Shown one piece after another: positions 2,049 through 14,046 of a stretch of DNA of 14,264 nt. The first letter of the stretch is position 1. The number at the start of each line of letters is the position of its first letter. Made by a program: the position numbers and the translations under genes. Under the pieces are notes generated by a model that did no database searches, was not told where the DNA came from, and was given only the letters and a program-made list of their open reading frames with translations. The stretch is from Hyphomicrobiales bacterium. GTDB lineage: Bacteria; Pseudomonadota; Alphaproteobacteria; Rhizobiales; HXMU1428-3. Where the stretch lies: assembly GCA_021775385.1 (NCBI GenBank), contig JAJFHW010000174.1:1-14264 (forward strand). The letters run 5' to 3'.

Positions 2049-2078
2049 GTGCGGATGGTGTGTGGGCATCTAAAGCAC
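2049..2078 (+). repeat. Dispersed hairpin repeat, copy 1 (after flgD)
   Basis: The outer stem is GTGC (2049-2052) with GCAC (2075-2078). The inner stem is GATG (2054-2057) with CATC (2067-2070). The internal loop has a single G on the left and TAAA on the right. The element starts 18 bases after the flgD stop codon. Compared with the flhA-leader copy, both stems have changed on both sides, which keeps pairing intact. Confidence 0.7.
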
Positions 2079-2094
2079 CTTAACAAACTAAGGA

Positions 2095-2115
2095 CTGATT
2101 AAGAGGTTTAATCAG
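2095..2115 (+). terminator. Possible weak terminator or processing hairpin after flgD
   Basis: CTGATTAA and TTAATCAG form a perfect 8-bp stem around a 5-base loop. The T-run (about 2127-2132) begins roughly ten bases after the stem, so intrinsic termination is uncertain. It lies 65 bases beyond the flgD stop. Confidence 0.3.
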
Positions 2116-2152
2116 ATCAAAGACGATTTTTTAATCATTATTCGCAAAAACA

Positions 2153-2176
2153 CCTCTAGTTTTGAAAAACTAGAGG
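2153..2176. repeat. Perfect inverted repeat upstream of the sigma54 promoter
   Basis: CCTCTAGTTT pairs with AAACTAGAGG around TGAA. No T-run follows on the + strand; an A-rich stretch precedes it, so it would resemble a terminator only for a minus-strand transcript. It lies 47 bases upstream of the sigma54 -24 element, so it could alternatively be a protein-binding site. Confidence 0.45.
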
Positions 2177-2222
2177 GCCAGAAGTTTAAGAATTAATAAT
2201 TTACAAACGCCATGCAGTAAAA

Positions 2223-2238
2223 TGGCACATCACTTGCA
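2223..2238 (+). promoter_or_regulatory. Sigma54 (-24/-12) promoter upstream of sciP
   Basis: TGGCAC at 2223-2228 and TTGCA at 2234-2238 are separated by five bases, with exactly ten bases between the GG and GC dinucleotides. This is the full sigma54 consensus arrangement. Transcription would start near 2249, leaving a leader of about 95 bases before sciP. FlbD, encoded in this window, is the sigma54 activator of late flagellar genes in Caulobacter and is the obvious candidate activator here; that link is inferred. Confidence 0.85.
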
Positions 2239-2269
2239 GTTGTATTCATTATATAACTTAGCGTGATCT

Positions 2270-2285
2270 TAACCCGGCTGGGTTA
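2270..2285. promoter_or_regulatory. Palindrome in the sciP leader
   Basis: TAACCC (2270-2275) and GGGTTA (2280-2285) are perfect inverted arms around GGCT. A second small inverted repeat, GTACT/AGTAC, follows at 2288-2303. Both fall between the predicted sigma54 start point and the sciP ATG. They could be an operator or a leader hairpin affecting translation; nothing decides between these. Confidence 0.4.
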
Positions 2286-2343
2286 TGGTACTCATTGAAG
2301 TACATAGTATTAATTGGGTCAGAGTATAGTAGAGTAGAGTAAA

Positions 2344-2625
2344 ATGACCGATCATGGATTTAGACCACGAGCCCGCTTTGTCATCGGCCCCGACGGGAGC
2401 CCGTTAACAGTAGCTGACTTACCACCAAAAACCACCAAACGTTGGGTAATTCGTAGAAAAGCTGAAGTTGTTGCTGCCGTGCGCGGTGGCCTCTTAAGCC
2501 TTGAAGAAGCCTGCGAGCGATACAAACTAACCGTTGAAGAGTTCTTAAGTTGGCAAAAGTCAATTGATCGTCACGGTTTGGCTGGCTTGCGAGCAACCCG
2601 AGTTCAGGATTACCGTGGCGCTTAG
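2344..2625 (+). CDS. sciP: SciP, small CtrA-inhibitory protein (DUF1153)
   Basis: This 93-residue protein matches SciP closely. The N-terminus has RPRARFVIGPDGSPLTVADLPP, and the core contains the RRKAEVVAAVRGGLLSLEEAC and LTVEEFLSWQ blocks, a helix-turn-helix, and then IDRHGLAGLR. In Caulobacter, SciP binds DNA and CtrA and represses CtrA-activated genes, including flagellar ones, in swarmer cells. The length is that of the family. No good Shine-Dalgarno sequence precedes the ATG; the upstream bases are short GTAGA repeats (about 2321-2341). A sigma54 promoter lies 106 bases upstream. In Caulobacter sciP also neighbours hook genes, so the setting after fliK-flgD is conserved even though flgE is missing here. 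The stop codon nearly touches a degenerate copy of the hairpin repeat. Confidence 0.95.
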   Translation: MTDHGFRPRARFVIGPDGSPLTVADLPPKTTKRWVIRRKAEVVAAVRGGLLSLEEACERYKLTVEEFLSWQKSIDRHGLAGLRATRVQDYRGA

Positions 2626-2654
2626 TGCGGTTGCAAGAGAACATCTAAAACGCA
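2626..2654 (+). repeat. Dispersed hairpin repeat, degenerate copy 2 (at sciP stop)
   Basis: The outer arms TGCG (2626-2629) and CGCA (2651-2654) pair. The inner arms GTTG (2630-2633) and CATC (2642-2645) pair with one mismatch, as if halves of the two inner-stem types were combined. TAAA follows the inner stem as in other copies. It begins right after the sciP TAG. Confidence 0.45.
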
Positions 2655-2828
2655 GCTGATAAATCACAGTTGCTTCTTAACAGATACCTTGTAAGCAAAC
2701 CAAAGCACCACAAAAAACTAGAACGCACTTCTTAAGTTTATTAAAAAGAACATGTCCTAGTTTAAGCCATCATTCTGATACAAAACAGTTTTAAAACAAT
2801 TCACAGTTTTTTTTCTGTTTCAAAAACA
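2655..2828. other. sciP 3' region, no gene seen
   Basis: The stretch is AT-rich, with no coding signal and no convincing promoter. It runs from the sciP stop-proximal repeat to the terminator at 2829-2858 and is probably the sciP 3' untranslated region, or possibly a separate small RNA ending at that terminator. Confidence 0.35.
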
Positions 2829-2858
2829 AACGCTGTACCATCTGGTGCAGCGTTTTTT
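2829..2858 (+). terminator. Strong intrinsic terminator after sciP
   Basis: AACGCTG and CAGCGTT form the base of a stem that continues through a T-G pair into ACC/GGT, with a short ATCT apex. A run of six T follows directly (2853-2858). This closes the sciP transcript about 200 bases after its stop and separates it from the fliF promoter. Confidence 0.85.
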
Positions 2859-2919
2859 GTCGTTTTCAACCTCCAAAAACGAACTCCCCTCTCAACTTTA
2901 GTCACAATATTAAAATTTA

Positions 2920-2989
2920 TAGGCAATTTTTGCCGATAAAATACAAAACTTTAAACTCTGTTTAACTATTAGTGGGTAAAAATTGCCTA
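2920..2989. promoter_or_regulatory. 12-bp inverted repeat flanking the CtrA-type box of fliF
   Basis: TAGGCAATTTTT (2920-2931) and its exact reverse complement AAAAATTGCCTA (2978-2989) bracket the CtrA-type box, with 46 bases between the arms. The left arm also overlaps a small local palindrome, GGCAA/TTGCC (2922-2934). The right arm would sit near the -10 region if the box occupies -35. The arms could be repressor sites acting by looping; in Caulobacter, FlbD represses fliF, so FlbD is one candidate. Confidence 0.55.
2951..2966 (+). promoter_or_regulatory. CtrA-type binding site in the fliF promoter
   Basis: TTAA (2951-2954), seven bases, then TTAAC (2962-2966) match the full CtrA box TTAA-N7-TTAAC. 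It lies about 113 bases before the fliF ATG. In Caulobacter, CtrA activates the fliF operon from such a box overlapping -35. A -10 element would fall around 2983-2990, where GCCTAG is a loose fit. Confidence 0.75.
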
Positions 2990-3079
2990 GAGGGAATCAT
3001 GTTACATAGTTTATTGCGTTTAAACGTGCGGAGCCCTGCGTCGTACAACCATTATTAATGTGTGGAGCAAGCCAGTCTG

Positions 3080-4789
3080 ATGAGTGAGAATGTATCTATT
3101 GGTAACATTGAAATTAATAACAACAATAACATCGTTAGTTTTTTACAGTCTTTAGGGATAGCAAGAGTAGCAGCAATGGCAACAGTTGCTGTTGGTATGA
3201 TTGGGTTCTTCATATTTTTAATGACGCGGTTTAATCAACCACACTTAACGGTCCTTTATTCTGACCTTGAGTTCAAAGATTCAATCGAAATTGTCAAAAA
3301 ACTGGAAGGGTTAAATGTCCCTCACAAAATTAAAGGCGACGGGGCTATAATCCTGGTCCCTAAAGATCAGGTTTTAAAATTACGGCTCACTATGGCTGAA
3401 GAAGGTTTGCCTGCCGGCGGCACTGTTGGGTACGAAATTTTCGATAAAAGCAACACTCTCGGCGCAACCAATTTCGTTCAAAACATCAATCACCTGAGAG
3501 CCATCGAAGGTGAGTTATCAAGAACAATTAAAGCTCTTAATCAAGTCCAGCAGGCTCGTGTTCATTTAGTGCTGCCAAAAAGAAAACTTTTTGCCAGAGA
3601 TAAAGCGAAAGCCTCAGCCTCTATTATTATAAAATCAAGAGGTGAACTAGATCGCGGCCAAATCAGAGCTATTCAACATCTGGTAGCCTCAGCAGTTGAA
3701 AATTTAAGCCCTAGCCAGGTTTCTATCGTTGACGAAACCGGTCGCCTCCTTGCCTCAGGCCTAAACCAAGGCCAAGGTCCAATGGCACAAGAAGTTGCCC
3801 AGCGCACACAAACTTACGAGCTCCGATTAACAAGAGAGTTAGAAGAAATTGTTGGCCGGATCGTAGGGGATGGTCATGTACGCATCCGTGTGAATGCTGA
3901 GATGGACTATAACCGTGTCACTAAATCATCTGAAATATATGACCCGGATGGAAAAGTTGTTCGTTCATCAAATACAAGAGAAGAAACCTCATCATCCTCT
4001 CAACCAACCGGCGATAAATCCGTAACCGTTGGTAATGATCTTCCAGATGCTAATGCTGATAAAGGCGATAAAGGTAATGCCAAAGAAGATCAGGCAAAAA
4101 ACCAAGAAGTCATCAACTATGAAATTTCAAAAACAAACCAGACAGAAATCATAGAAGGCGGTCGCATAAAAAGACTGTCCGTCGCCGTTTTGGTTGATGG
4201 TGTTTATACAAAAGTTGCTGATGGCAAATCAACCTATGCACCTCGTGAAAAGGTTGAACTTGAAGAAATCGCCGACCTTGTCCGCTCGGCCATTGGTTTT
4301 GATAAACAACGCGGTGACTTGATCAATGTAACCTACCTAATATTTGCTAAGTGCGTAAATCTAAATCTTGATGATGCAGCCGTAGCTTCATTGTTTGACT
4401 TTACCAAAGCTGATTATTTCTACATTGCTGAACTCTTCATAACTTTGTTTATTTCTCTGTTTTTCATTCTCTTTGTCATTCGCCCCTTGGTAAAAAGAGT
4501 GTTGGAGCCAGAGAAAAATGACATCGTAATAGATCTAGTCGAACATCTCGGCGAAGCTCAAAGAGCCAATGACAATCCAGTTGAACTAGATCCAGAAAAA
4601 CTCAACACATTAGAGCAAGTAGAAGACCAACTAAATGAAAACAAAACAGCTCAGACCATTCAGGACGCTAAACAAAATGGAGAAATCCAAGCTGAAGCTA
4701 TCAGACAAATAGGAACACTCGTCGAAAACAACCCACGAGAAGCAACAAGCGTCATCCGTAATTGGGTTGATGAAGAAAAAGCAGCGTAA
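3080..4789 (+). CDS. fliF: Flagellar MS-ring protein FliF
   Basis: FliF forms the membrane-embedded MS ring, the base on which the rotor and export gate assemble. I choose the ATG at 3080 (569 residues) because GGAG at 3064-3067 is a Shine-Dalgarno sequence for it; a GTG at 3062 would add six residues but would overlap that site. A hydrophobic segment at about 30-48 is the first transmembrane helix. The YscJ/FliF periplasmic domain follows, with LTVLYSDLEF and the conserved ARVHLVLPKRKLF stretch. Residues near 280-350 are charged and low-complexity. A second transmembrane segment is near 446-470 (ELFITLFISLFFILFVIRPLV). The acidic C-terminal tail ending in NPREATSVIRNWVDEEKAA is the FliG-binding part. 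It is the first gene of the fliF-fliG-fliH-fliN-flbD operon; fliG starts 12 bases after its stop. Confidence 0.97.
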   Translation: MSENVSIGNIEINNNNNIVSFLQSLGIARVAAMATVAVGMIGFFIFLMTRFNQPHLTVLYSDLEFKDSIEIVKKLEGLNVPHKIKGDGAIILVPKDQVLKLRLTMAEEGLPAGGTVGYEIFDKSNTLGATNFVQNINHLRAIEGELSRTIKALNQVQQARVHLVLPKRKLFARDKAKASASIIIKSRGELDRGQIRAIQHLVASAVENLSPSQVSIVDETGRLLASGLNQGQGPMAQEVAQRTQTYELRLTRELEEIVGRIVGDGHVRIRVNAEMDYNRVTKSSEIYDPDGKVVRSSNTREETSSSSQPTGDKSVTVGNDLPDANADKGDKGNAKEDQAKNQEVINYEISKTNQTEIIEGGRIKRLSVAVLVDGVYTKVADGKSTYAPREKVELEEIADLVRSAIGFDKQRGDLINVTYLIFAKCVNLNLDDAAVASLFDFTKADYFYIAELFITLFISLFFILFVIRPLVKRVLEPEKNDIVIDLVEHLGEAQRANDNPVELDPEKLNTLEQVEDQLNENKTAQTIQDAKQNGEIQAEAIRQIGTLVENNPREATSVIRNWVDEEKAA

Positions 4790-4801
4790 AGGAGAAGAGC
4801 A

Positions 4802-5869
4802 ATGGCCGAAACAATGACAATACCGGAAACATCATCTGCCCTTCCAATAGCTTCACAAGCTTCAGGACTCGCCTCAGACACACTAAACGGAGAAGAACGC
4901 GCAGCTATCTTATTGCTCGCCTTAGGCAAAGACTATGGCGAACCTATTTGGGAATCCCTTGAAGACGATGAGATCGCTGAAATATCAATCGCCATGTCAA
5001 AACTCGGAAAGGTCACAACAGACCAGGTTGAAGAAATTTTAGCGCGCTTTATTTCAGATATGTCAATTTCTGGCGCTGTGATGGGCAACTTTGAATCAAC
5101 AGAAAGCCTCCTCAAACAAATCTTGCCAGAAGATCGAGTTAACCTGATTATGGAAGGCATCCGTGGTCCAGCTGGCCGTAACATGTGGGAAAAGCTCTCA
5201 AATGTGCAAGCCCACATCCTTGCCAACTATTTAAAGAATGAATACCCACAAACCATTGCCGTGATTTTATCCAAAATTTCTTCTGAACATGCCGCTAGGG
5301 TACTTGGCTTATTGCCAGATGATTTCTCGATGGAAGTTATCCAACGGATGCTCGCAATGGAGGCTGTACAAAAAGAAATTCTTGAAAAAATTGAACAAAC
5401 TCTCCGTAAAGAATTTATCTCCAATCTTTCAAGTACAAATCAAACAGATGCTCATGAAACTATGGCAAGCATTTTCAACAACTTCGATCGTCAAACAGAA
5501 GCTCTCTTCATGGGCAAATTGGAAGAAGTTGACCGTGACGCAGCTGAGCGCATTAAAAACTTAATGTTCACATTCGATGATTTAGGCACTCTCAATTCTT
5601 CAAGCATACAAGCACTGCTAAGAGAAGTTGAAAAAGATGTCTTAGCCCTTGCCATGAAAGGCACTTCAGAAAAAATTAAAGGGTTTTTCCTTGCAAACAT
5701 GTCCAAGAGAGCCGCTGAAATGCTCGTTGATGATTTAGAAAATATGGGCCCTGTGCGTTTAAGTGATGTGGATGAAGCTCAGGCAAAAATGATCAGTAAA
5801 GCAAAAGACTTAGAAGCTTCTGGTGACATTCAGATCACCAAAGGTGACGATGAAGATGAGTTTATTTAG
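4802..5869 (+). CDS. fliG: Flagellar motor switch protein FliG
   Basis: FliG is the rotor protein that contacts the stator and, with FliM and FliN, sets rotation direction. The 355-residue length is typical. The first 27 residues are a variable leader, then NGEERAAILLLALG opens the FliF-binding domain. The middle domain carries EYPQ at 147-150 (the variant of EHPQ) followed by TIAVILSKISSEHAARVLGLLP. The C-terminal torque domain contains IKGFFLANMSKRAAEMLVDDLENMGPVRLSDVDEAQ and ends in an acidic tail. AAAGGAG precedes the ATG by six bases. The stop codon abuts the next ATG, indicating translational coupling with the fliH-like gene. Confidence 0.97.
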   Translation: MAETMTIPETSSALPIASQASGLASDTLNGEERAAILLLALGKDYGEPIWESLEDDEIAEISIAMSKLGKVTTDQVEEILARFISDMSISGAVMGNFESTESLLKQILPEDRVNLIMEGIRGPAGRNMWEKLSNVQAHILANYLKNEYPQTIAVILSKISSEHAARVLGLLPDDFSMEVIQRMLAMEAVQKEILEKIEQTLRKEFISNLSSTNQTDAHETMASIFNNFDRQTEALFMGKLEEVDRDAAERIKNLMFTFDDLGTLNSSSIQALLREVEKDVLALAMKGTSEKIKGFFLANMSKRAAEMLVDDLENMGPVRLSDVDEAQAKMISKAKDLEASGDIQITKGDDEDEFI

Positions 5870-6595
5870 ATGAAAAGCGAACAAATGTCAGCACCGCAAA
5901 AATACATGTTCGACAATTCATTCGATAACAAGATCGATGTTATCGACCCCTTGGTCGAGCTCAAAGCACGCTTTGAAGAAAAGATAAAAAAGGCAAAAGC
6001 TGAAGCCTTTGCTGAAGGTCGTCTTGCAGGTGAAAAAGAGGCATTAGCAACAATAGAAAATCAAACAAAAGACGCCCTTGAAAAAATAGCCAATCAAGAA
6101 CAAAAAATACAAAAAGACTTTGAAGAAGAGCTAACAAAATTAGAATCTAAAGCAATTGAATTTGGAATAGCAGCCGGCACAACACTCGCAGGCGACCTCA
6201 TTAGTAAAGAGCCAATGTCGTTGATTGAAAAATTCTTCAAAGAGGCGTTTGAAATAGTGCGCGGCGTCCCTCATTTAACGGCAAGAATAAATCCAACCCT
6301 TGCTCAACAAACAAAAGAAGCTAGCAAAGTTTGGATAAGTGAAAGCGGATATACCGGTGACTTAGAAATAATTGAAGATGCAAATTTAAAAGAGTGTGAT
6401 GTTGCTATCACTTGGAAAGACGGAGGCATTTCTCAAAATGTTGATGAAATCATGAATTCAATCAAATCTGCATTGAATAATTTTTTCGCATCAAAAGAAA
6501 TAGCAAACGGCGGACAAAACGTTCCAGTTTTACCAATAGAACAAGTCGCAACAACACCAATTGAACCTTTAAACAAAAGTGAGAACTCATCATGA
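5870..6595 (+). CDS. fliH: FliH/FlbE-type export-ATPase regulator
   Basis: Position between fliG and fliN, size (241 residues) and composition fit FliH, called FlbE in Caulobacter. FliH binds the export ATPase FliI and links it to the C-ring. Residues about 30-90 are highly charged and predicted to be coiled-coil (EEKIKKAKAEAFAEGRLAGEKEAL, then Lys/Glu/Gln-rich repeats), including the small-residue spacing typical of FliH. The C-terminal part (about 95-205) resembles the E-type stalk domain fold, with a hydrophobic LISKEPMSLIEKFFKEAFEIV helix. The ATG directly follows the fliG stop and lacks a good Shine-Dalgarno sequence; an internal ATG at 5885 is an alternative start. The last four bases overlap fliN. 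Sequence conservation in this family is low, so the call rests partly on context. Confidence 0.85.
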   Translation: MKSEQMSAPQKYMFDNSFDNKIDVIDPLVELKARFEEKIKKAKAEAFAEGRLAGEKEALATIENQTKDALEKIANQEQKIQKDFEEELTKLESKAIEFGIAAGTTLAGDLISKEPMSLIEKFFKEAFEIVRGVPHLTARINPTLAQQTKEASKVWISESGYTGDLEIIEDANLKECDVAITWKDGGISQNVDEIMNSIKSALNNFFASKEIANGGQNVPVLPIEQVATTPIEPLNKSENSS

Positions 6596-6942
6596 GTGAA
6601 GATCAAGAAAAAAAAGATGATCTTGAGCTAACAGATTTCTCTGAAAATGCCTCAGATAGCGGAGAAAGTACAGAAGTCAGTACTGGACCAAAACAAGTCG
6701 AAGACCTCCAAGCCGTATTTGACGTGCCTGTTAAAATTTCCGCAGTTCTTGGACGTACAAATTTAGAAATCTCAGATCTGTTAGATCTCGATGAAGGGGA
6801 CGTCATTGAACTTGACAGAAAAGTCGGTGAAGCAATTGACCTTTATGTAAACAACCGTCTGGTCGCTCGCGGCGAAGTTGTACTTGTTGATGAAAAGCTC
6901 GGTGTCACTATGACCGAAATTATCTCTACGAAAAAAGATTAA
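6592..6942 (+). CDS. fliN: Flagellar motor switch protein FliN
   Basis: FliN forms the lower C-ring with FliM and docks the FliH-FliI export ATPase. The 116-residue protein has a variable acidic N-terminus (1-38) and a SpoA/FliN domain at about 42-112. That domain carries VFDVPVKISAVLGRTNLEISDLLDLDEGDVIELDRKVGEAIDLYVNNRLVARGEVVLVDEKLGVTMTEI, very close to the family consensus. The ATG overlaps the fliH end through ATGA, and a GTGAG-type sequence inside fliH may serve as ribosome site. fliM is not in this window. flbD follows 37 bases later. Confidence 0.95.
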   Translation: MSEDQEKKDDLELTDFSENASDSGESTEVSTGPKQVEDLQAVFDVPVKISAVLGRTNLEISDLLDLDEGDVIELDRKVGEAIDLYVNNRLVARGEVVLVDEKLGVTMTEIISTKKD

Positions 6943-6979
6943 ATTATAAAATAAACAGGCCCCTTAAAGGAGCAACATT

Positions 6980-8338
6980 ATGCGTCTAACAATCATAGGA
7001 AGTCTTAGCGGCAACCTTAGTACAGCCACCAAAATTGCGATGCAAAGCGGGGCAAAAGTCACTCATGCTCAAACCATTGAAACGGCACTCAATGAGCTTC
7101 GCAATGGGCAAGGGGCCGACCTCATTATGATTGAGGATAGCTTTGACATTAGAGAGTTAGTCGAACGCCTTGAAGCCGAACATATCCATATCTCAGTTGT
7201 TGCTTGCGGAAGCGGGGAAAACACAAGAGCCGCCGTAGAAGCCATTCAAGCTGGCGCCAAAGAATACATCCCCCTTCCACCAGACCCGGAATTAATCGCA
7301 GCAATTCTAACCGCCGTCTCAAGAGATCAAAAAGCAATGATCTATAGAGACCCGATCATGACTAAAGTCATTGCTATGGCAGATCAGGTTGCCAATTCCG
7401 ACGCAAGTATCCTTATCACAGGAGAATCCGGAACTGGTAAAGAAGTTATGGCTCGCCATGTCCACGAGCAATCAGCCAGAGCAAATAAAATATTCATTTC
7501 AGTGAATTGTGCGGCTATTCCAGAGAACTTACTGGAGTCTGAACTCTTCGGTCACGAAAAAGGCGCGTTCACAGGCGCTCTTCACCGCCGCATTGGTAAA
7601 TTTGAAGAAGCCAATGGCGGCACCCTACTCCTAGATGAAATTTCAGAAATGGACGTGCGCCTACAAGCAAAACTATTGCGCGCTCTGCAAGAAAGAATAA
7701 TCGACCGTGTTGGCGGCAGTAAACCTGTCCCTGTCGACATTCGCATCATAGCGACTTCAAACCGTAATTTAGCAGAAGCTGTTAAAGAAGGAACATTTAG
7801 AGAAGACTTGCTCTATCGTCTTAATGTCGTAAACCTAACCATTCCCCCGTTGCGCGAGAGAAAAGAAGACATCATCGCACTCGCATCGCATTTTGTTCAA
7901 AAATATACGCAAGCAAATGGCTTTGAGAGCAAAACCTTAAGCGAAGATGCCGTAAACGCGCTTTTATTAAATGAATGGCAAGGAAATGTCAGAGAATTAG
8001 AAAACACCATCCACCGTGCTGTGCTTCTATCAAATGGCTCAGAAATCAACTCAGATGTCATTCGCCCACCAGAAGCATTAACGAATTTAGCAAGTGAGCC
8101 AGCGGCAGCCGCCGCAGCGGCGGCAGAAGCAGTACAACAAAATCTTGTGGGTATGACTGTTGCAGAGGTTGAGCGAGATTTAATCTTGAATACACTAGAC
8201 CATTGTATCGGCAACAGAACACACGCAGCAAATATTCTAGGGATCTCAATCAGAACACTTAGAAACAAACTTAAACAATATGGTGATGAAGGACTTGAAA
8301 TCCCTCAACCTAATGAAACCCGCACCATCGCAACTTAA
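6980..8338 (+). CDS. flbD: FlbD, sigma54-dependent flagellar transcription activator
   Basis: FlbD activates late (sigma54) flagellar promoters and represses fliF in Caulobacter. The N-terminal 120 residues form a degenerate receiver domain: where response regulators carry the phosphorylated Asp there is Glu (E52, in ADLIMIED). The AAA+ domain has Walker A GESGTGKE (148-155), the sigma54-contact loop GAFTGA (195-200), Walker B GGTLLLDE (213-220) and the RLNVVNLTIPPLRER region. An alanine-rich linker lies near residue 375. A Fis-type helix-turn-helix follows at about 402-440 (HCIGNRTHAANILGISIRTLRNKL). The linker and C-terminus match FlbD rather than generic NtrC proteins. AAAGGAG sits 8 bases before the ATG. 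It is the last gene of the fliF operon. Confidence 0.95.
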   Translation: MRLTIIGSLSGNLSTATKIAMQSGAKVTHAQTIETALNELRNGQGADLIMIEDSFDIRELVERLEAEHIHISVVACGSGENTRAAVEAIQAGAKEYIPLPPDPELIAAILTAVSRDQKAMIYRDPIMTKVIAMADQVANSDASILITGESGTGKEVMARHVHEQSARANKIFISVNCAAIPENLLESELFGHEKGAFTGALHRRIGKFEEANGGTLLLDEISEMDVRLQAKLLRALQERIIDRVGGSKPVPVDIRIIATSNRNLAEAVKEGTFREDLLYRLNVVNLTIPPLRERKEDIIALASHFVQKYTQANGFESKTLSEDAVNALLLNEWQGNVRELENTIHRAVLLSNGSEINSDVIRPPEALTNLASEPAAAAAAAAEAVQQNLVGMTVAEVERDLILNTLDHCIGNRTHAANILGISIRTLRNKLKQYGDEGLEIPQPNETRTIAT

Positions 8339-8441
8339 AAACATTCCGAGCGTTTGGCTCAAAACAGATACCTATTTTAGAATAACAGCCGTTCCTAACG
8401 GAAAACCACAGCTAAAAAAATGTAAGTGTAACTAAAAAACA
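8339..8441. other. flbD 3' region with two small hairpins, no gene
   Basis: Two short stems are visible: GAGC/GCTC around five bases (8348-8360) and CCGTT/AACGG around CCT (8389-8401). Neither is followed by a T-run, so neither is a convincing terminator. No promoter or sigma54 site was found. Confidence 0.4.
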
Positions 8442-8560
8442 GGGTTTACTGCACGAAGAGGGAATGTCGCCACTTCAACAGCGGCAGGACATGGCAGCAC
8501 GAGCTACCCCGCGCAAGCGCCTCCCCTCGGAGGCCTATGAGCTTCAGCTCATAGAATAGC
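8442..8560 (+). ncRNA. Candidate structured RNA or flhA leader
   Basis: A series of nested and consecutive stems is visible. GGGT (8442-8445) pairs with ACCC (8506-8509), CTGC (8449-8452) with GCAG (8494-8497), and TGTCGCC (8465-8471) with GGC (8483-8485) plus GACA (8488-8491). Next come CGC/GCG around a GCAA tetraloop (8510-8519), GCCTCC/GGAGGC (8519-8534), and an 8-bp stem CTATGAGC/GCTCATAG around TTCA (8535-8554). The run is more G+C-rich than the surrounding intergenic DNA. It could be a small RNA or the folded leader of flhA. No known family was recognised and no terminator follows. Confidence 0.4.
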
Positions 8561-8582
8561 CGTGAGAGATAAAGTAAGCAAC

Positions 8583-8610
8583 GAATGCATAGTGGGCATC
8601 TGAAACCGCC
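8583..8610 (+). repeat. Dispersed hairpin repeat, degenerate copy 3 (flhA leader)
   Basis: The right half, GTGGGCATCTGAAA, matches the family. The inner stem is ATGC (8585-8588) with GCAT (8596-8599), and the outer stem is lost or altered. It is the first of three tandem copies before flhA. Confidence 0.5.
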
Positions 8611-8619
8611 ACTAAAACA

Positions 8620-8649
8620 GCCCGGTTGCGTAGTAGGCAACTGAAGCGC
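8620..8649 (+). repeat. Dispersed hairpin repeat, copy 4 (flhA leader)
   Basis: The inner stem is GTTGC (8625-8629) with GCAAC (8637-8641), followed by TGAA. The outer arms are GCCC (8620-8623) and GCGC (8646-8649), with one mismatch. The right half GGCAACTGAAGCGCAAA is identical to that of the next copy. Confidence 0.65.
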
Positions 8650-8658
8650 AAATAATCA

Positions 8659-8687
8659 GCGCGGTTGCTGGTGGGCAACTGAAGCGC
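8659..8687 (+). repeat. Dispersed hairpin repeat, copy 5 (flhA leader)
   Basis: This is a complete copy. The outer stem is GCGC (8659-8662) with GCGC (8684-8687); the inner stem is GTTGC (8664-8668) with GCAAC (8675-8679). The internal loop is G on the left and TGAA on the right, with TGGTGG at the apex. It ends 28 bases before the flhA ATG. Confidence 0.7.
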
Positions 8688-8715
8688 AAACAAAAATGAA
8701 AGCATAAAATAAATT

Positions 8716-10815
8716 ATGAGCGAAACAACGGTAATGAGCAGAATGAAAGGTCATGGCGATATCGGCCTGGCTCTTGGCATCATTGCAATTTTAGTCATGC
8801 TCATATTACCAATGCCCTCTTTTATGTTGGATATGGCCCTCGCCATATCAATTACGTTTTCAGTTCTTATTTTGATGACATCTCTCTTTATTCACACTCC
8901 TTTAGAATTTTCCTCTTTTCCAACAATCTTACTAATTGCCACCATGATGCGGTTGGCGTTAAACCTTGCCTCCACGCGTTTAATCCTAAGTCATGGCCAT
9001 GAAGGAACAGATGCAGCCGGTCACGTGATTGAAGCTTTTGGTAATTTTGTCATGCAGGGCAATTTTATCATTGGTATTATTGTCTTTTCCATTCTTGTCC
9101 TTGTGAACTTTATAGTGATCACAAAAGGTTCTGGGCGTATCGCCGAAGTCGCAGCCCGCTTTACCTTAGACGCCATGCCAGGCAAACAAATGGCGATTGA
9201 CGCTGATCTTTCAGCTGGCCTCATCAATGAAGAGCAAGCAAAAGAACGACGCCAGCGTCTTGAAAGTGAAAGTTCTTTCTTTGGCGCAATGGATGGTGCC
9301 TCTAAATTCGTAAGAGGAGACGCTGTTGCAGGTCTCTTAATCACCGTAATTAACATCGTTGGTGGTATCATTATTGGTGTGGGACAAAATGATCTCTCAT
9401 TTGGTGATGCGGCACAGACATACACCCTTCTCACCATTGGTGATGGTTTGGTCAGCCAGGTTCCAGCTCTTATCGTATCAACAGCCGCTGGCCTCCTTGT
9501 TTCTAAAGCAGGTGTCGATGGAGCCGCAAACGTAGCGCTCGCAGAGCAACTTTCTGGCTATCCAAAAGCATTAGCCATGTCATCTGGCGTTATGTTTTTT
9601 ATGTCAACTTTACCAGGCATTCCACTTGTACCATTTATATCCCTTGCCGCTGGCGCAGGGTTTTTGGCATGGCAGTCCAGTGGGGCCTTAAAGAAAAAGA
9701 AAGAAGAAGTCGCGCGCATGACAGCAGTGCAACAGATGGAAGCCGCCGCACCTCCAGCTGAAGAGCCCATAGCAAATGTTCTAAAAATTGATAGTTTACG
9801 TCTTGAGCTCGGCTACTCACTCATCCCAATGATCAAAGACGGCGCAGCTGATGGTGACAAATTAACAGAACAAATAAAAGCCCTACGCAGACAATTAGCA
9901 GCAGACATGGGGTTTGTAATGCCGTCCGTGCGTATTCTTGATGATGTTCACCTCGGGCCCAACAACTATATTATCAAAGTGAAAGAAGTCGCTTCTGGTG
10001 ATGGAGAAATCTACCCTGGTCAATATCTTGTCATGGATCCATCTGGTCGTGATATCCAGATTTCTGGCATCACGACTATCGAGCCAACATTTGGCCTACC
10101 AGCAAAATGGATCACTCCAGAAAACCGTGATGATGCACAAATAAAAGGGTACACAGTGGTAGACCCGGTCACAGTTATTTCAACACACTTAACCGAAGTA
10201 TTGAAAAACAACATGGCCGATCTACTCTCTTATACAGAGGTCAATGGCTTACTTGATAATCTGGATGCAAGTCAAAAACGCTTAATGGAAGATATTGTAC
10301 CAGCCCAAATCAATATAACAGGCATACAACGGATCCTTCAAAACCTACTTAAAGAACGAGTATCAATCCGTGACCTTCCATCAATCCTTGAAGGTATTGC
10401 AGAAGCAACAGCCTTCACATCAAATGGACAAGCTATCACAGAGCATGTGAGGTCTCGCCTTGCCCGTCAAATTTCGGCATCTCATACCAATCATGATGGA
10501 ACTTTAGCCATCATTTCTCTACATCCACAATGGGAACAAGAATTTGCTGAAACCATCATCGGTGACGGTGATGATCGCCAGCTAGCCATGGCACCAAGTA
10601 AACTACAGGATTTTATTCGCAATGTTGCAGCCGCTTTTGAAGAAGCATCCGCAAATGGAGATTATGCAGTCCTGCTAACAAGCCCAGCGGCTAGACCTTT
10701 TGTGCGCTCCATTGTCGAACGCTTCCGTCCACAAACCGTCGTCCTAAGCCAAAATGAAATACACCCAACAGCTAAAATAAGAACAGCAGCCCTCGTAGCC
10801 TCAGTAGAAGCTTAA
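8716..10815 (+). CDS. flhA: Flagellar export-gate protein FlhA
   Basis: FlhA is the large inner-membrane subunit of the flagellar type III export gate. Its N-terminal part forms the proton-driven channel and its cytoplasmic part docks substrates and chaperones. The 699-residue length is standard. About eight hydrophobic segments lie between residues 18 and 320. The conserved cytoplasmic FHIPEP-type loop contains KGSGRIAEVAARFTLDAMPGKQMAIDADL (the IDADL Asp at 162) and GAMDGASKFVRGDAVAGL. Residues about 345-699 form the soluble domain, ending in PFVRSIVERFRPQTVVLSQNEI. It is not in the fliF operon but stands alone behind a 377-base leader. No clear Shine-Dalgarno sequence precedes the ATG; three copies of the hairpin repeat lie just upstream, which may bear on its expression. 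Confidence 0.97.
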   Translation: MSETTVMSRMKGHGDIGLALGIIAILVMLILPMPSFMLDMALAISITFSVLILMTSLFIHTPLEFSSFPTILLIATMMRLALNLASTRLILSHGHEGTDAAGHVIEAFGNFVMQGNFIIGIIVFSILVLVNFIVITKGSGRIAEVAARFTLDAMPGKQMAIDADLSAGLINEEQAKERRQRLESESSFFGAMDGASKFVRGDAVAGLLITVINIVGGIIIGVGQNDLSFGDAAQTYTLLTIGDGLVSQVPALIVSTAAGLLVSKAGVDGAANVALAEQLSGYPKALAMSSGVMFFMSTLPGIPLVPFISLAAGAGFLAWQSSGALKKKKEEVARMTAVQQMEAAAPPAEEPIANVLKIDSLRLELGYSLIPMIKDGAADGDKLTEQIKALRRQLAADMGFVMPSVRILDDVHLGPNNYIIKVKEVASGDGEIYPGQYLVMDPSGRDIQISGITTIEPTFGLPAKWITPENRDDAQIKGYTVVDPVTVISTHLTEVLKNNMADLLSYTEVNGLLDNLDASQKRLMEDIVPAQINITGIQRILQNLLKERVSIRDLPSILEGIAEATAFTSNGQAITEHVRSRLARQISASHTNHDGTLAIISLHPQWEQEFAETIIGDGDDRQLAMAPSKLQDFIRNVAAAFEEASANGDYAVLLTSPAARPFVRSIVERFRPQTVVLSQNEIHPTAKIRTAALVASVEA

Positions 10816-10854
10816 ACAGCAACAAATATCTAAAAACTTTATATTTCTGTTTTT
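10816..10854 (+). terminator. Possible weak terminator after flhA
   Basis: ACAG (10816-10819) and CTGT (10847-10850), with inner AATAT/ATATT, form an interrupted AT-rich stem followed by four T. Its low stability makes this tentative. Confidence 0.25.
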
Positions 10855-10929
10855 AAAAGTTAGTATGTCTAGCATTAAAACATAGAAATGAATTCAGGAT
10901 ATTCAAAACAGTCTTGTATAAGCAATCGT

Positions 10930-10956
10930 CTTAAAACCGGGGAGCCGTTTTAAAAG
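10930..10956 (+). other. Hairpin in the flhA-comF interval
   Basis: AAAA-C-CGG and CCG-TTTT pair around GGAG, with a bulged C and further CTT/AAG pairing at the base. No T-run follows. It runs directly into the next copy of the hairpin repeat, so the two may form one folded leader or tail. Confidence 0.35.
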
Positions 10957-10986
10957 TATGGGATGCTGCGTCAGATACTGAAGCGC
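10955..10986 (+). repeat. Dispersed hairpin repeat, variant copy 6 (before comF)
   Basis: The stem GTAT (10956-10959) with ATAC (10975-10978) is followed by TGAAGCGCAAAT, the same 3' half as the flhA-leader copies. An extra CTG/CAG pairing lies in the apical loop. The left outer arm is not preserved. The inner stem here is a third sequence type that still pairs. Confidence 0.5.
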
Positions 10987-11057
10987 AAATAAAAAAGAAA
11001 CGCTAGAACAAGCTTCGAAATCATTTCTTTAAATTAACAAATAAGAGGAATGACCTA

Positions 11058-11867
11058 GTGTCTGCTTATCTCAGATTGTTAAACTCTCTTAGAAACCAGG
11101 AATTGGTTCATAAAAGATTTCATGAATTTGCCCACCAAGCAAACAAATCACTAATAGATTATCTTTTCCCACCAGTTTGCCTAAACTGCTTAACCTCATT
11201 AGAAGTCCCCCACAAAGTCTGCCCTGACTGCTGGCAAAATATAGATTTCTTAATTGCCCCTTTATGCGAAGTGAAAGGCACACCATTTCCATTTGATTTA
11301 GAGCCAGGTACCATCTCAGCAACGGCTTTAAAAAACCCTCCTCATTATGATAAGGCAAGAGGAGTAGCCACTTATGAAGGCACGATGAAGGAGCTAATAC
11401 ATAAATTAAAATATAATGACCGCCACGAACTCTTAAATTTATTAGTAGCTTGGATGAAGACAGCTGGAATAGAACTCATTCAACAAAGTGATTTAATCAT
11501 TCCAATCCCATTATATAAATCACGCCAATGGGAAAGACGGTTTAATCAATCAGCTTTACTAGCAAAACGGTTAAGTGAACAAAGTAACATTCCTTATGAG
11601 TGCTCTATACTACTTAGAAAAAAGAAAACACGCTCCCAAGTCGGTCTCACCTCTAAAGAGAGATACCAAAATCTCAAAAATGCATTTGTCATTGAAGAAA
11701 CCAAAAAGAACAAATTAGAGGGTAAATCAATACTTGTAATAGATGATGTAATAACAACCGGAGCAACTATAAATTCTGCAGCTATCGCACTAAAAAAATC
11801 AGGTGCAAAGTCAGTAAATATACTAAGTCTCGCAATCGTGACCAATAGTAACAATCAATTTATTTAG
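11058..11867 (+). CDS. comF: ComF-family phosphoribosyltransferase-like protein
   Basis: ComF proteins combine an N-terminal zinc-binding part with a phosphoribosyltransferase fold; some act in DNA uptake for transformation, and many have no tested role. Residues C41, C44, C55 and C58 (CLNC, CPDC) form the zinc ribbon. PLCEVKGTPFPFDLEPG is the usual linker of alphaproteobacterial members. The PRPP-binding motif VIDDVITTGAT is at 227-237. The 269-residue length is slightly long because of an N-terminal extension of about 30 residues. The start is GTG, supported by AGAGGA about ten bases upstream; the ATG at 11050 is immediately followed by a stop. Codon use is more AT-rich than in the flagellar genes. 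It is probably unrelated to the flagellar genes; other competence genes are not seen here. Confidence 0.85.
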   Translation: MSAYLRLLNSLRNQELVHKRFHEFAHQANKSLIDYLFPPVCLNCLTSLEVPHKVCPDCWQNIDFLIAPLCEVKGTPFPFDLEPGTISATALKNPPHYDKARGVATYEGTMKELIHKLKYNDRHELLNLLVAWMKTAGIELIQQSDLIIPIPLYKSRQWERRFNQSALLAKRLSEQSNIPYECSILLRKKKTRSQVGLTSKERYQNLKNAFVIEETKKNKLEGKSILVIDDVITTGATINSAAIALKKSGAKSVNILSLAIVTNSNNQFI

Positions 11868-12005
11868 CAAATAAAAGAAGCATGCTAATTATTTTCTTAT
11901 TAAACAAATCAAGTCAAATCAATTTATATTCATTAAAATCAGTTGACTAAGCTATAATAAATACAAATATTAACGAATTAGAGTCTTATTAGAGTTTACA
12001 AACTT

Positions 12006-12029
12006 GTATTGAAAAATTATTTTCAATAC
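12006..12029. promoter_or_regulatory. Perfect inverted repeat upstream of mucR
   Basis: GTATTGAAAA (12006-12015) and TTTTCAATAC (12020-12029) are exact inverted arms around ATTA. No T-run follows, so an operator is more likely than a terminator. It lies about 265 bases before the mucR start. Confidence 0.4.
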
Positions 12030-12226
12030 CTACTTAAAAAACTAGAAGTCAGACTTGCAAAGTCTTATTCATATTAATATAAGAACAAGCATTATAAAAT
12101 AGATATTAACAATACAATTTGCTAATATGTAATATAAATCAAAATGCATATAATTTATATATTTAAAAGATACTAGAAAATACTGATATTAAAACTTTAA
12201 TTTTTTTATTACTTAAAAAAACAATT

Positions 12227-12275
12227 TATTGCCCATATATTAGGGCTACCAAAGCCAAATATATAATTGGCAATA
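12227..12275 (+). promoter_or_regulatory. mucR leader hairpin next to the ribosome-binding site
   Basis: TATTGCC (12227-12233) pairs with GGCAATA (12269-12275), and within it GGCT (12244-12247) pairs with AGCC (12253-12256). The hairpin ends two bases before AAAGGAG (12278-12284 region), the Shine-Dalgarno of mucR. It may affect translation or act as an operator. The outer arms share the ATTGCC/GGCAAT core with the inverted repeat at the fliF promoter. Confidence 0.4.
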
Positions 12276-12293
12276 TAAAGGAGTTTTCAAACA

Positions 12294-12701
12294 ATGGATC
12301 AAGAAAAAAATAATGTTGCTGTCGTGGAACTCACGGCCGATATTGTTGCTGCATATGTCAGTAACAACTCAGTTGTAGCAACAGATGTACCTTCCTTAAT
12401 TGCAGACGTATTTGATGCGCTAAGTAAAGCAGCTCGCGTCAGCCCAGGAAGCACTCTTGAAGATCTAAAGCCTGCGGTTCCAGTAAAGAAGTCCATCACA
12501 CCAGACTTTCTTGTCTGTCTTGAAGATGGCAAAAAGTTTAAATCATTAAAACGCCACCTAAGAACACATTACAATCTCTCCCCTGAAGAATATCGTGAAA
12601 AGTGGAGCCTCCCACATGATTACCCTATGGTTGCACCAAATTACGCAGCCGCACGTTCTCGCCTCGCTAAAAAAATGGGTCTTGGCCAAAGAGCAGTGTA
12701 A
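12294..12701 (+). CDS. mucR: Ros/MucR-family zinc-finger transcriptional regulator
   Basis: MucR/Ros proteins are alphaproteobacterial DNA-binding regulators of AT-rich targets. In Caulobacter, MucR1/2 work with SciP in the swarmer/S-phase switch. The 135-residue length is typical. The N-terminal 45 residues are the oligomerisation part ([13 protein letters not shown]). The finger region [31 protein letters not shown] spans 74-104, with C75, H88 and H92. The position of the second Cys ligand is Asp (D78), a variant found in many MucR relatives. The end, [26 protein letters not shown], is the family signature. AAAGGAG lies about ten bases before the ATG. A strong terminator 33 bases after the stop makes it monocistronic. 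Confidence 0.93.
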
Positions 12702-12734
12702 GTAAATCATCTATTCCTCATTATTAATTTAGAT

Positions 12735-12769
12735 AAAAACCTCACTAACCGAGTTAGTGAGGTTTTTTT
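12735..12769 (+). terminator. Intrinsic terminator of mucR
   Basis: AAACCTCACTAAC and GTTAGTGAGGTTT form a perfect stem around CGA and are followed by a run of T (to 12769). The A-run before the stem could make it bidirectional. Confidence 0.93.
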
Positions 12770-12822
12770 ATAAAAAAATTTTTGAATCTTATCAGGCACT
12801 TAATTCTCTCTAACATCGAAAT

Positions 12823-12838
12823 GAGAACGTTTGTTCTC
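12823..12838. promoter_or_regulatory. Additional palindrome in the SOS operator region
   Basis: GAGAAC and GTTCTC are exact inverted arms around GTTT. The right arm contributes a GTTC half-site located six bases before the LexA box at 12843, so it may be an extra LexA half-site or resemble the other LexA spacing class (GAAC...GTTC). Confidence 0.5.
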
Positions 12839-12842
12839 TTTT

Positions 12843-12857
12843 GTTCTTTACATGTTC
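12843..12857 (+). promoter_or_regulatory. LexA box, alphaproteobacterial type
   Basis: GTTC (12843-12846), seven bases, GTTC (12854-12857) is the direct-repeat LexA box GTTC-N7-GTTC of alphaproteobacteria. It lies 53 bases upstream of the imuA ATG. Confidence 0.85.
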
Positions 12858-12879
12858 TCATTTTGCAGGTAAAAAATAA

Positions 12880-12894
12880 GAACATTAAGAGAAC
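12880..12894 (-). promoter_or_regulatory. Second LexA box, inverted orientation
   Basis: GAAC (12880-12883), seven bases, GAAC (12891-12894) is the same box read on the other strand. It lies 16-30 bases before the imuA ATG, just upstream of the AGGAG ribosome site, and would block transcription near its start. Confidence 0.75.
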
Positions 12895-12909
12895 TTAGGA
12901 GTCGGAATA

Positions 12910-13815
12910 ATGAGAAAAGAAGCTGAAATTCTATCACATCAACTAGCCCCAAACGCAGTATTGTCATTGTTAGACGAATCTTCTGCTCCTCTAGCAACTC
13001 ATATAACAATACCAACCGGCGCTTCGGTAAACTCTTCAGTTACTGATAACTCAACTATGACAGAATTTTCGAATTCTCTTAAGTCACTAGAACTAACAAT
13101 TTCCCCCACATCATCCACTCAACCATCGCAACAAAAGGTAACTGAATTAAATTTTGGAACACCACAAATAGATTTGTCTCTCCCAGAAGGTACACTTTCT
13201 AAAGATGGCCTCCACGAATTTAATCCAAAACACTTTAGAGACCAGGACCTAGCGTTCAAAACCGCCTTAACATTGGCCGCTCGTGAGATCACGACTTCAG
13301 AAACAAAACCTATTTTCTGCTTTTTAACTGAAGATCAATCAAACCTTATTAAATGGCTCTCAAGTAAAGAAATTTCTAAACTAGGGCTCACAAAAGAAAA
13401 TCTGATTGTTATCACAGCCAAACATACTGACGATTTATTATGGGCTATGGAAGAAACCTTACATACTGTAGATGCAGTGGCTCTGGTTGCTCACTTTACA
13501 TTGTTAAGCAATATCTCTGCTCAAAGATTATCATTCGCCTCTCAATCAAACAAAATCCCTTGCCTATTGATTTGCAATCATAAAATTGATGGCCCAAACC
13601 ATACAAAATCAAAATGGACTGTTTGGAATGAAAATGAAGAAGAAAACGACGAAAGTACTCAAATCCTCCAGGATGGTAAAATTGGCCTCTCTTTAAGTCA
13701 GATCAAAAATGAAAAACAAAACGCAAATTGGATCATCAAGTGGCAAGCTGAAAAAGGACGGTTTACTGCATCTTCAAAAGAAACATTAACCTCTCAAAGT
13801 ACAAAAATTCATTAG
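12910..13815 (+). CDS. imuA: ImuA-like SOS mutagenesis protein
   Basis: ImuA works with the polymerase-like ImuB and DnaE2 in SOS-induced mutagenic DNA synthesis and belongs loosely to the RecA-like superfamily. The recognisable elements are GLHEF at 100-104 (the GLHE motif opening the core), a hydrophobic FCFL strand, the LLWAMEETL helix (176-184), the SAQRLSFASQSNKIPCLLIC block, and the NWIIKW end (273-278). No Walker A is seen. The first 90 residues are Ser/Thr-rich and poorly conserved. The 301-residue length fits, allowing for that extended N-terminus. AGGAG precedes the ATG by eight bases. Two LexA boxes directly upstream independently support an SOS gene. imuB does not follow; repeats and a terminator do. 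Confidence 0.85.
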   Translation: MRKEAEILSHQLAPNAVLSLLDESSAPLATHITIPTGASVNSSVTDNSTMTEFSNSLKSLELTISPTSSTQPSQQKVTELNFGTPQIDLSLPEGTLSKDGLHEFNPKHFRDQDLAFKTALTLAAREITTSETKPIFCFLTEDQSNLIKWLSSKEISKLGLTKENLIVITAKHTDDLLWAMEETLHTVDAVALVAHFTLLSNISAQRLSFASQSNKIPCLLICNHKIDGPNHTKSKWTVWNENEEENDESTQILQDGKIGLSLSQIKNEKQNANWIIKWQAEKGRFTASSKETLTSQSTKIH

Positions 13816-13836
13816 GATCTAGAAGCATGTTTCGCA

Positions 13837-13867
13837 TAAACAGATGTTATGTGAGCATCTGAAGCTT
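13837..13867 (+). repeat. Dispersed hairpin repeat, copy 7 (after imuA)
   Basis: AGATG (13842-13846) pairs with CATCT (13856-13860), followed by GAAGCTTA. Outer arms TAAAC (13837-13841) and GCTTA match in four of five positions. It begins about 20 bases after the imuA stop. Confidence 0.55.
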
Positions 13868-13885
13868 AAAAAAAAAGGACGCTTT

Positions 13886-13916
13886 GTGCCGGTTGCTAGC
13901 GGGCAACTGAAGGCAC
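13886..13916 (+). repeat. Dispersed hairpin repeat, copy 8
   Basis: This is a complete copy. The outer stem is GTGCC (13886-13890) with GGCAC (13912-13916); the inner stem is GTTGC (13892-13896) with GCAAC (13903-13907). The internal loop is G on the left and TGAA on the right, with TAGCGG at the apex. The outer stem differs from the flhA-leader copy on both sides yet pairs perfectly. Confidence 0.7.
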
Positions 13917-13924
13917 ACTAAAAA

Positions 13925-13939
13925 GGGCATCTAAAGCTT
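13925..13939 (+). repeat. Dispersed hairpin repeat, half copy 9
   Basis: Only the right half, GGGCATCTAAAGCTT, is present; no matching left arm is seen upstream. It is the third unit of this tandem group after imuA. Confidence 0.45.
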
Positions 13940-13971
13940 AAATACAATATGCTATAGATCTAAAACCAGCT

Positions 13972-14046
13972 ACATCCCCTCTTTCCAACTTTGTTTCCCC
14001 CAATCTGAGGACAATGCCCCTGCGTGGAAAGAGGGGATGTTTTTTT
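13972..14046 (+). terminator. Long-stem terminator after imuA (possible small RNA end)
   Basis: The 16 bases ACATCCCCTCTTTCCA (13972-13987) and their exact complement TGGAAAGAGGGGATGT (14025-14040) form a perfect stem, followed by a run of T (14040-14046). The 37-base loop is unusually large and C-rich, with runs of C near its start and end. It lies about 155 bases after the imuA stop and may end the imuA transcript or a separate small RNA. Confidence 0.85.

What the first reader, a model, noticed from the sequence alone, without database searches (positions are those of the whole stretch)
2049..13939. Dispersed, covarying hairpin repeat family with a fixed G / TRAA internal loop
About nine intergenic elements share one plan: outer stem, single G on the left against TGAA or TAAA on the right, inner stem, G/T-rich apex. 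Sites: 2049, 2626, 8583, 8620, 8659, 10955, 13837, 13886, 13925. Paired bases change together: outer GCGC/GCGC, GTGC/GCAC, GTGCC/GGCAC; inner GTTGC/GCAAC, GATG/CATC, and GTAT/ATAC in a variant. Such compensatory change argues for a selected RNA structure rather than a DNA site. All copies are on the coding strand, within or next to untranslated regions of flgD, sciP, flhA and imuA, and two groups are tandem. I know of no named family with this plan; they may control mRNA stability, act as protein-binding sites, or be small mobile palindromes.
Basis: partly seen in the sequence, partly recalled or inferred. Interest (0 to 1): 0.85.

Follow-up and report, generated by a model that had tools for sequence, protein, structure and literature searches.

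The report
Replication-oriented mobile hairpin repeats
Hundreds of copies of a hairpin some 33 to 40 bases long sit between the genes of this bacterium and its relatives; they look like small jumping DNA hairpins that point with chromosome copying rather than RNA switches, and what moves them is not known.

Summary
The hairpin family is real and much larger than the window shows: its 10-base core occurs 150 times in this genome (control 2), and two cores together 7 to 351 times in the eight genomes of the genus. Related copies occur in a second family of the order. The stems covary. Three results speak against a selected RNA. In 1.03 Mb of two relatives 108 of 118 intergenic copies lie on the C-rich strand (by convention the lagging-strand sequence), and between genes on the other strand 39 of 47 oppose transcription. 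Outer-stem defects show no preference for G-T over A-C (36, 55). Copies come and go between sister species, and four of five readable insertions lie in loops or bulges of other palindromic repeats. A rate test was inconclusive. Best reading: a short non-autonomous palindromic mobile DNA, REP-like in build, spread on single-stranded DNA at the fork. It is not a REP by membership: no GT[AG]G foot, and no Y1 gene found in four well-assembled carriers. The mover is unknown. Polarity is clear in the genus, not in the second family.

The parts
2049..2078 (+). family A element, GATG-type inner stem, TAAA bulge; not found in the orthologous flgD-sciP gap of G002, G003 and G006, though G002 and G003 keep a string like its right end
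   Evidence: CM 33.6 bits at 2047-2080; alignment of orthologous gaps, read by eye
2624..2656 (+). very degenerate candidate beside the end of sciP; at best a decayed copy
   Evidence: not found by the model at E 10; RNA fold z -0.01; G006 has a better copy at the same place, read by eye
8453..8570 (+). a copy of another multi-hairpin repeat ('family C'), which often holds family A copies in relatives; limits set by eye
   Evidence: its 3' tail pattern has 91 distinct matches in 1.92 Mb of partly redundant loci, 70 of them printed, a few by chance in genes
8583..8604 (+). partial element
   Evidence: CM 17.1 bits, model positions 7-27
8618..8651 (+). element, first of a tandem pair
   Evidence: CM 44.5 bits; a tandem pair at this place in G002 and G003, none seen in G006, G007, G001, G004 (by eye)
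8657..8689 (+). element, canonical copy (GCGC outer stem, GTTGC inner stem)
   Evidence: CM 49.4 bits; single-stranded DNA fold -8.9 kcal/mol for this strand, -5.5 for the complement
10954..10988 (+). doubtful decayed copy after flhA
   Evidence: CM 8.6 bits, E 0.98; fold z -0.76
13836..13869 (+). element without outer stem
   Evidence: CM 22.7 bits; RNA fold shows the inner hairpin only
13877..13937 (+). nested composite: arms of an older element at 13877-13882 and 13925-13937 around the intact copy at 13885-13917
   Evidence: read directly from the sequence; 15 nested composites found by a script in own and related contigs
13885..13917 (+). element, lying in the loop of the composite
   Evidence: CM 43.2 bits; DNA fold -9.7 kcal/mol, complement -6.4

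Best explanation
A family of roughly 33-40 bp non-autonomous palindromic mobile DNA elements (family A). The unit is an outer stem of about four pairs, a G-T or G-C pair with a three-base bulge, a fixed inner hairpin GGNTGC-TNGTGG-GCANCY, and an A-rich tail. It spreads as single-stranded DNA at the replication fork (inferred), entering in one orientation relative to fork movement and often at exposed single-stranded spots such as loops and bulges of other palindromic repeats, its own included, which gives nested and tandem arrays. Covariation in the outer stem reflects subfamilies and, probably, template switching that restores palindromes. Shown: abundance, intergenic placement, polarity in the genus, presence/absence differences, nesting, lack of a G-U signature in the outer stem. 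Inferred: single-stranded intermediate, fork coupling, template switching, and that differences between species are gains as well as losses. Unknown: the trans-acting enzyme.
For: Copy number of two cores: G002 351, G006 301, G003 272, G000 262, G007 98, G004 49, G005 9, G001 7. Inside called genes: 0 of 47 own copies at 81% coding, 12 of 165 in other loci at 78%, 11 of 129 in G002/G003. Polarity: 57 of 58 follow the contig majority in 20 x 20 kb of G003, and third-position GC and AT skews agree with it on 6 of 6 contigs; 108 of 118 on the C-rich strand in G002/G003 (contains most and partly orthologous loci); 8 of 8 on contig C1 and 5 of 5 on one piece of C2 in G004; G000 38 of 38 where the contig skew is at least 0.1, 58 of 68 overall. 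Differences between G003 and G002: 5 of 24 and 11 of 22 elements absent by an indel, two further clusters without flank match. Insertions: 4 of 5 readable empty sites lie in loop or bulge bases of another palindromic repeat; for 3 the empty site itself folds so, for 1 only the repeat's usual sequence is a hairpin. 15 nested composites, two of them one locus in two genomes.
Against: No mover found: Y1_Tnp in 1 of 8 genus genomes and 1 of 6 of the other family (the one being G273, with a single model match); RVT_1 in 3 of 10, IS110 in 2 of 10. No target duplication seen and a few bases lost at some sites, unlike Y1 chemistry (general knowledge). Few identical copies: 66 distinct words of 70 in G000, 98 of 102 in G003, 27 of 28 in G002, so no sign of a recent burst. 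The core is nearly the same in genomes of 41% and 65-66% GC, which hints at a conserved recognising factor or selection. Orthologous cores: 35/388 and 8/206 changed after dropping false or shifted alignments, flanks 0.114 and 0.125, so constraint is not excluded. Polarity weak or absent in the second family: G256 4 C-rich and 10 G-rich, G343 16 and 7. Raw GC skew of single loci agrees for only 102 of 157 copies. That C-rich means lagging rests on convention and on 503 against 340 genes on the G-rich strand; two translation-factor genes taken as fusA and tuf agree in G002 and G003 but lie on the element strand in G004.
Confidence: 0.6

Rival explanations
1. Selected RNA hairpin in untranslated regions (mRNA stability or protein binding).
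For: Covariation beyond shuffles. Own-genome copies mostly share the strand of both neighbours: 19 of 22 gaps. A rate test does not exclude constraint on the core.
Against: With strand fixed per contig 16.6 of those 22 are expected; G003 29 of 45 against 27.4 expected; G002 5 same and 7 opposite. In loci of other genomes 57 same, 43 opposite. 39 of 47 copies between genes of the G-rich strand oppose transcription. Outer-stem G-T 36, A-C 55, the ratio of shuffled partners 82:133. No Rfam match over an element in the window up to E 5, none at gathering score in 7 loci.
Confidence: 0.09
2. REP/REPIN-like element moved by a Y1 (RAYT) transposase that is lost, missed or too diverged to detect.
For: Size, palindrome with a bulge, intergenic, hundreds of copies, clusters; IS200/IS605 transposases act on the lagging-strand template (PMC6006769, passages seen).
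Against: No Y1_Tnp in G002 (99% complete), G004 (98%), G343 (98%) and G256 (100%). In G003 one of two Y1 genes (L031) has a palindrome of another sequence at both sides; no complete family A copy was seen near either, and L032 holds one string like its right end. No GT[AG]G foot in the consensus. Copies in clusters stand mostly in direct order.
Confidence: 0.15
3. Functional polar chromosome signal (as KOPS or Chi are), kept for replication or segregation.
For: Strong strand polarity; core shared by two families; constraint not excluded.
Against: Two-core copy number from 7 to 351 within one genus, though G005, with 9, has at least 22 model matches; presence/absence differences between sister species; tandem and nested arrays; few copies inside genes, unlike such short motifs (general knowledge).
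Confidence: 0.11

Closest known systems
REP sequences and REPINs with RAYT transposases
   Same: short imperfect palindromes, extragenic, hundreds of copies, insertion into or next to each other, compensatory changes in predicted hairpins; their tandem arrays too were forward in one part and reverse in another part of the chromosome (PMC3116915, passages seen)
   Different: no GT[AG]G foot, direct rather than inverted order, no RAYT found in four well-assembled carriers, and replication polarity of single copies, not only of arrays
Rhizobium intergenic mosaic elements
   Same: palindromic mosaic repeats in intergenic DNA of the same order (from a citation in PMC2873474, and recall)
   Different: sequences not compared; polarity and loop insertion not known to me for them
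IS200/IS605 elements
   Same: single-stranded, hairpin-recognising, tied to the lagging-strand template (PMC6006769, passages seen)
   Different: no transposase gene in the element; no Y1 gene found in most carriers tested
Mitochondrial repetitive hairpin elements (sponge RHE, fungal double-hairpin elements)
   Same: tiny intergenic mobile-looking hairpins whose tandem insertion makes compound hairpins (PMC2800124, passages seen)
   Different: organelle genomes; there loops vary and stems are conserved, here core loop and inner stem are conserved and the outer stem varies

Membership tests
REP / REPIN | 20-60 bp imperfect palindrome, intergenic, many copies | tested here: met
REP / REPIN | GT[AG]G at the 5' foot of the hairpin | tested here: not met
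   base frequencies before the stem of 122 copies with a 4-bp outer stem: A 89% just before it, no GT[AG]G; only this strand's 5' foot was profiled as such
REP / REPIN | RAYT / Y1 transposase gene in the genome, flanked by the same repeat | tested here: not met
   Y1_Tnp in 1 of 8 genus genomes and 1 of 6 of the other family (loci of G273 not inspected); the G003 loci hold no complete family A copy
REP / REPIN | inverted doublets | tested here: not met
   arrays are direct; of 13 own contigs with several intergenic copies none holds both strands, one (L210) does if a copy inside a called gene is counted; some reversed copies exist in relatives
Rfam RNA family | match to a curated covariance model | tested here: not met
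   window up to E 5: 7 weak matches, none over an element; 7 loci at gathering score: 0
IS200/IS605-type element | Y1 transposase acting on subterminal hairpins | tested here: not met
   the element has no room for a gene
Integron attC site | conserved AAC / GTT triplets in the two boxes (recalled) | tested here: not met
   91 of 291 copies have A-T at the second inner pair, which breaks the triplet
Rhizobium intergenic mosaic elements | sequence similarity to RIME or ABC repeats | not tested
   their sequences were not at hand

The most novel reading that the evidence does not exclude
A hairpin that multiplies without a transposase of any known class: fork-coupled template switching, or an undescribed single-strand enzyme, copies it into exposed loops of other palindromes in one orientation, so that intergenic DNA becomes nested hairpins written by replication itself. 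Families B and C, hairpin repeats of the same genomes (C with the same polarity), would be products of the same process.
Probability: 0.25. Interest if true: 0.8.

Novelty: new variant of a known kind. Interest (0 to 1): 0.52.

Why it matters
It is a natural case in which dispersed hairpins with true covariation look like regulatory RNA but behave as replication-polar mobile DNA, and two reusable tests (strand against replication; G-T against A-C defects) tell the two apart. The polarity, the insertion into unpaired bases of other palindromes and the lack of a Y1 gene in good carrier genomes make the old question of how REP-like repeats spread testable where the usual enzyme seems absent.

Tried and rejected
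RNA regulatory element: rejected as the main reading (see rivals). Rfam: nothing over an element. REP of G003's Y1 genes: rejected. Integron attC: rejected on the inner-stem variant. Reverse transcriptase (RVT_1) and IS110 as common movers: only 3 of 10 and 2 of 10 genomes; relaxases, plasmid Rep proteins and other HUH enzymes were not searched. Phage origin: one viral-contig match to one pattern; I printed its surroundings but did not annotate them, and take it as chance. Kink-turn: considered from the bulge, dropped because the left strand lacks the GA pair (by eye). Inner-stem G-T against A-C (30, 9) cannot be used: my pattern barred A-C at the pair that holds 22 of the 30; at the one unbiased pair it is 7 and 9. 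Fixing leading and lagging strands by rRNA failed (no 16S motif in held loci); tRNAs (few) were not decisive and translation-factor genes were mixed. Papers: eight searches; no title or abstract start in the listings named this family, which covers the held open-access library only; five papers were seen as passages, none read whole.
Full report
WHAT WAS CHECKED. The window is a whole contig (G000:C84) of a 2.88 Mb, 400-contig draft genome, 79% complete. GCAACTGAAG occurs 150 times in the genome, its reversed control twice; GCATCTGAAG, the second type, 112 times, control 0.

ANATOMY. From 57 distinct own-genome copies the plan is: outer stem, G, inner arm GTTGC or GATGC, loop TNGTGG, inner arm GCAAC or GCATC, TGAA, outer stem. 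The two best copies fold with the G paired to T and a three-base GAA bulge, as DNA and as RNA. In 291 distinct copies from the genus the G faces T in 269 and C in 22, the pattern allowing only these. Copies with a 4-bp outer stem carry an A just before it (89% of 122) and an A-rich tail. In the second family a third inner type, GGTGC/GCACC, and CGAA are common. Tandem arrays have periods of about 31-40 bases.

COVARIATION IS REAL BUT NOT RNA-LIKE. Paired columns exceed shuffled and slid controls; copies are related and form outer-stem subfamilies, so counts overstate events. If RNA, or one DNA strand, were under selection, G-T should outnumber A-C among defects. In the outer stem, where the pattern puts no limit, G-T is 36 and A-C 55, the ratio of shuffled partners (82:133); single defects in otherwise perfect four-pair stems are 14 and 21. 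Template switching can create paired changes in one event (PMC8794818, passages).

ORIENTATION FOLLOWS REPLICATION, NOT GENES, IN RELATIVES. Raw skew of single loci is noisier: 102 of 157 copies agree. With 340 kb of G002 and more of G003: of 129 copies 11 lie in called genes; of 118 intergenic, 108 are on the C-rich strand. Between codirectional genes on the C-rich strand 37 of 37 copies, and between genes on the G-rich strand 39 of 47, are on the C-rich strand. These sets overlap and partly hold orthologous loci. Own genome: 38 of 38 where the contig skew is at least 0.1, 58 of 68 overall; none of 13 contigs with several intergenic copies holds both strands, one does if a copy inside a called gene counts. 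Against this: 19 of 22 own-genome gaps with codirectional genes carry copies on the gene strand, 16.6 being expected if strand is fixed per contig, a slight excess that I cannot explain away. In the second family polarity is weak or absent.

PRESENCE, ABSENCE AND INSERTION SITES. The element at 2049 is missing from the same gap in G002, G003 and G006; since G002 and G003 keep a string like its right end, this may be a deletion. A tandem pair stands at 8618-8689 in G000, G002 and G003 and was not seen in G006, G007, G001 and G004 (by eye). Between G003 and G002, 5 of 24 and 11 of 22 elements are absent by an indel. Five single-copy differences have a readable empty site: two in the 3' bulge of another palindromic repeat (family B), one in an apical loop of family C, one in a second family C hairpin whose empty copy in G002 carries a change and does not itself fold so, and one in plain intergenic DNA. 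No target duplication is visible and a few bases are lost at some sites. Fifteen nested composites place one element in the loop of another (two are one locus in two genomes). Copies are nearly all different. Orthologous cores differ at 56/434 and 27/251 as first counted; without false and shifted alignments 35/388 and 8/206, flanks being 348/3040 and 346/2768. Copies were picked by core match in one genome, so roughly half the flank rate is expected without constraint; the test is inconclusive.

DISTRIBUTION. The model scanned over 347 genomes of the order matched 29 at E 0.01. Only 20 candidates per genome were scored, so counts are floors. Several matches per genome occur only in the window's genus (8 of 8; three in G001) and in family f2 (G343 24, G256 22, G201 13, G288 6, G059 3); 16 others have one match each.

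MECHANISM. The G/T-rich strand folds better as DNA than its complement (-8.9 against -5.5 kcal/mol at 8657, -9.7 against -6.4 at 13885, -5.6 against -1.7 at 2047). By convention it is the leading-strand template and nascent lagging strand; 503 genes on the G-rich and 340 on the C-rich strand agree. One-way insertion, unpaired target bases and direct arrays fit a single-stranded intermediate. No Y1, IS110 or reverse-transcriptase family tracks the repeats, so the enzyme, if there is one, is open.

VERDICT. A new family of palindromic intergenic mobile DNA, REP-like in plan but outside the REP definition, with unusual replication polarity and insertion into loops.

Noticed in passing
window 8453-8570; many loci, e.g. 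L142, L156, L139: Family C: a recurrent element of some 120-200 bases with several variable stems and fixed joints (GAAGAAGGAG, GGACATGGC, CCTCGNAGG, AATAGCC, GTGAGAGA); no Rfam match in the loci scanned; 36 of 38 tails on the C-rich strand in G002/G003. Often carries family A in its loops.
   Followed up: partly
G003:C3 about 69.6 kb, G002:C1 about 685.8 kb: Family B: another palindromic repeat with an outer stem and a 3' bulge of about five bases around an inner hairpin, in which family A copies are inserted.
   Followed up: partly
L031, L032 (G003:C1 11.5-15.4 kb): Two RAYT-like Y1 transposase genes, the only Y1_Tnp matches in the 8 genus genomes; the L031 gene has a palindrome of its own at both sides.
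   Followed up: partly
L066, L096, L111: Some family A copies in the first hairpin loop of family C are reversed, as if the loop had inverted between the stem arms.
   Followed up: no
window about 12738-12770 and 13971-14046: Two long hairpins followed by T runs, likely terminators after mucR and near the contig end (by eye).
   Followed up: no
L258 about 10041-10330 (G343:C15): Eight near-identical family A copies at a 32-base period, with a masked stretch between them, in the Hyphomicrobium MAG; the simple gene caller placed them in an open frame.
   Followed up: no
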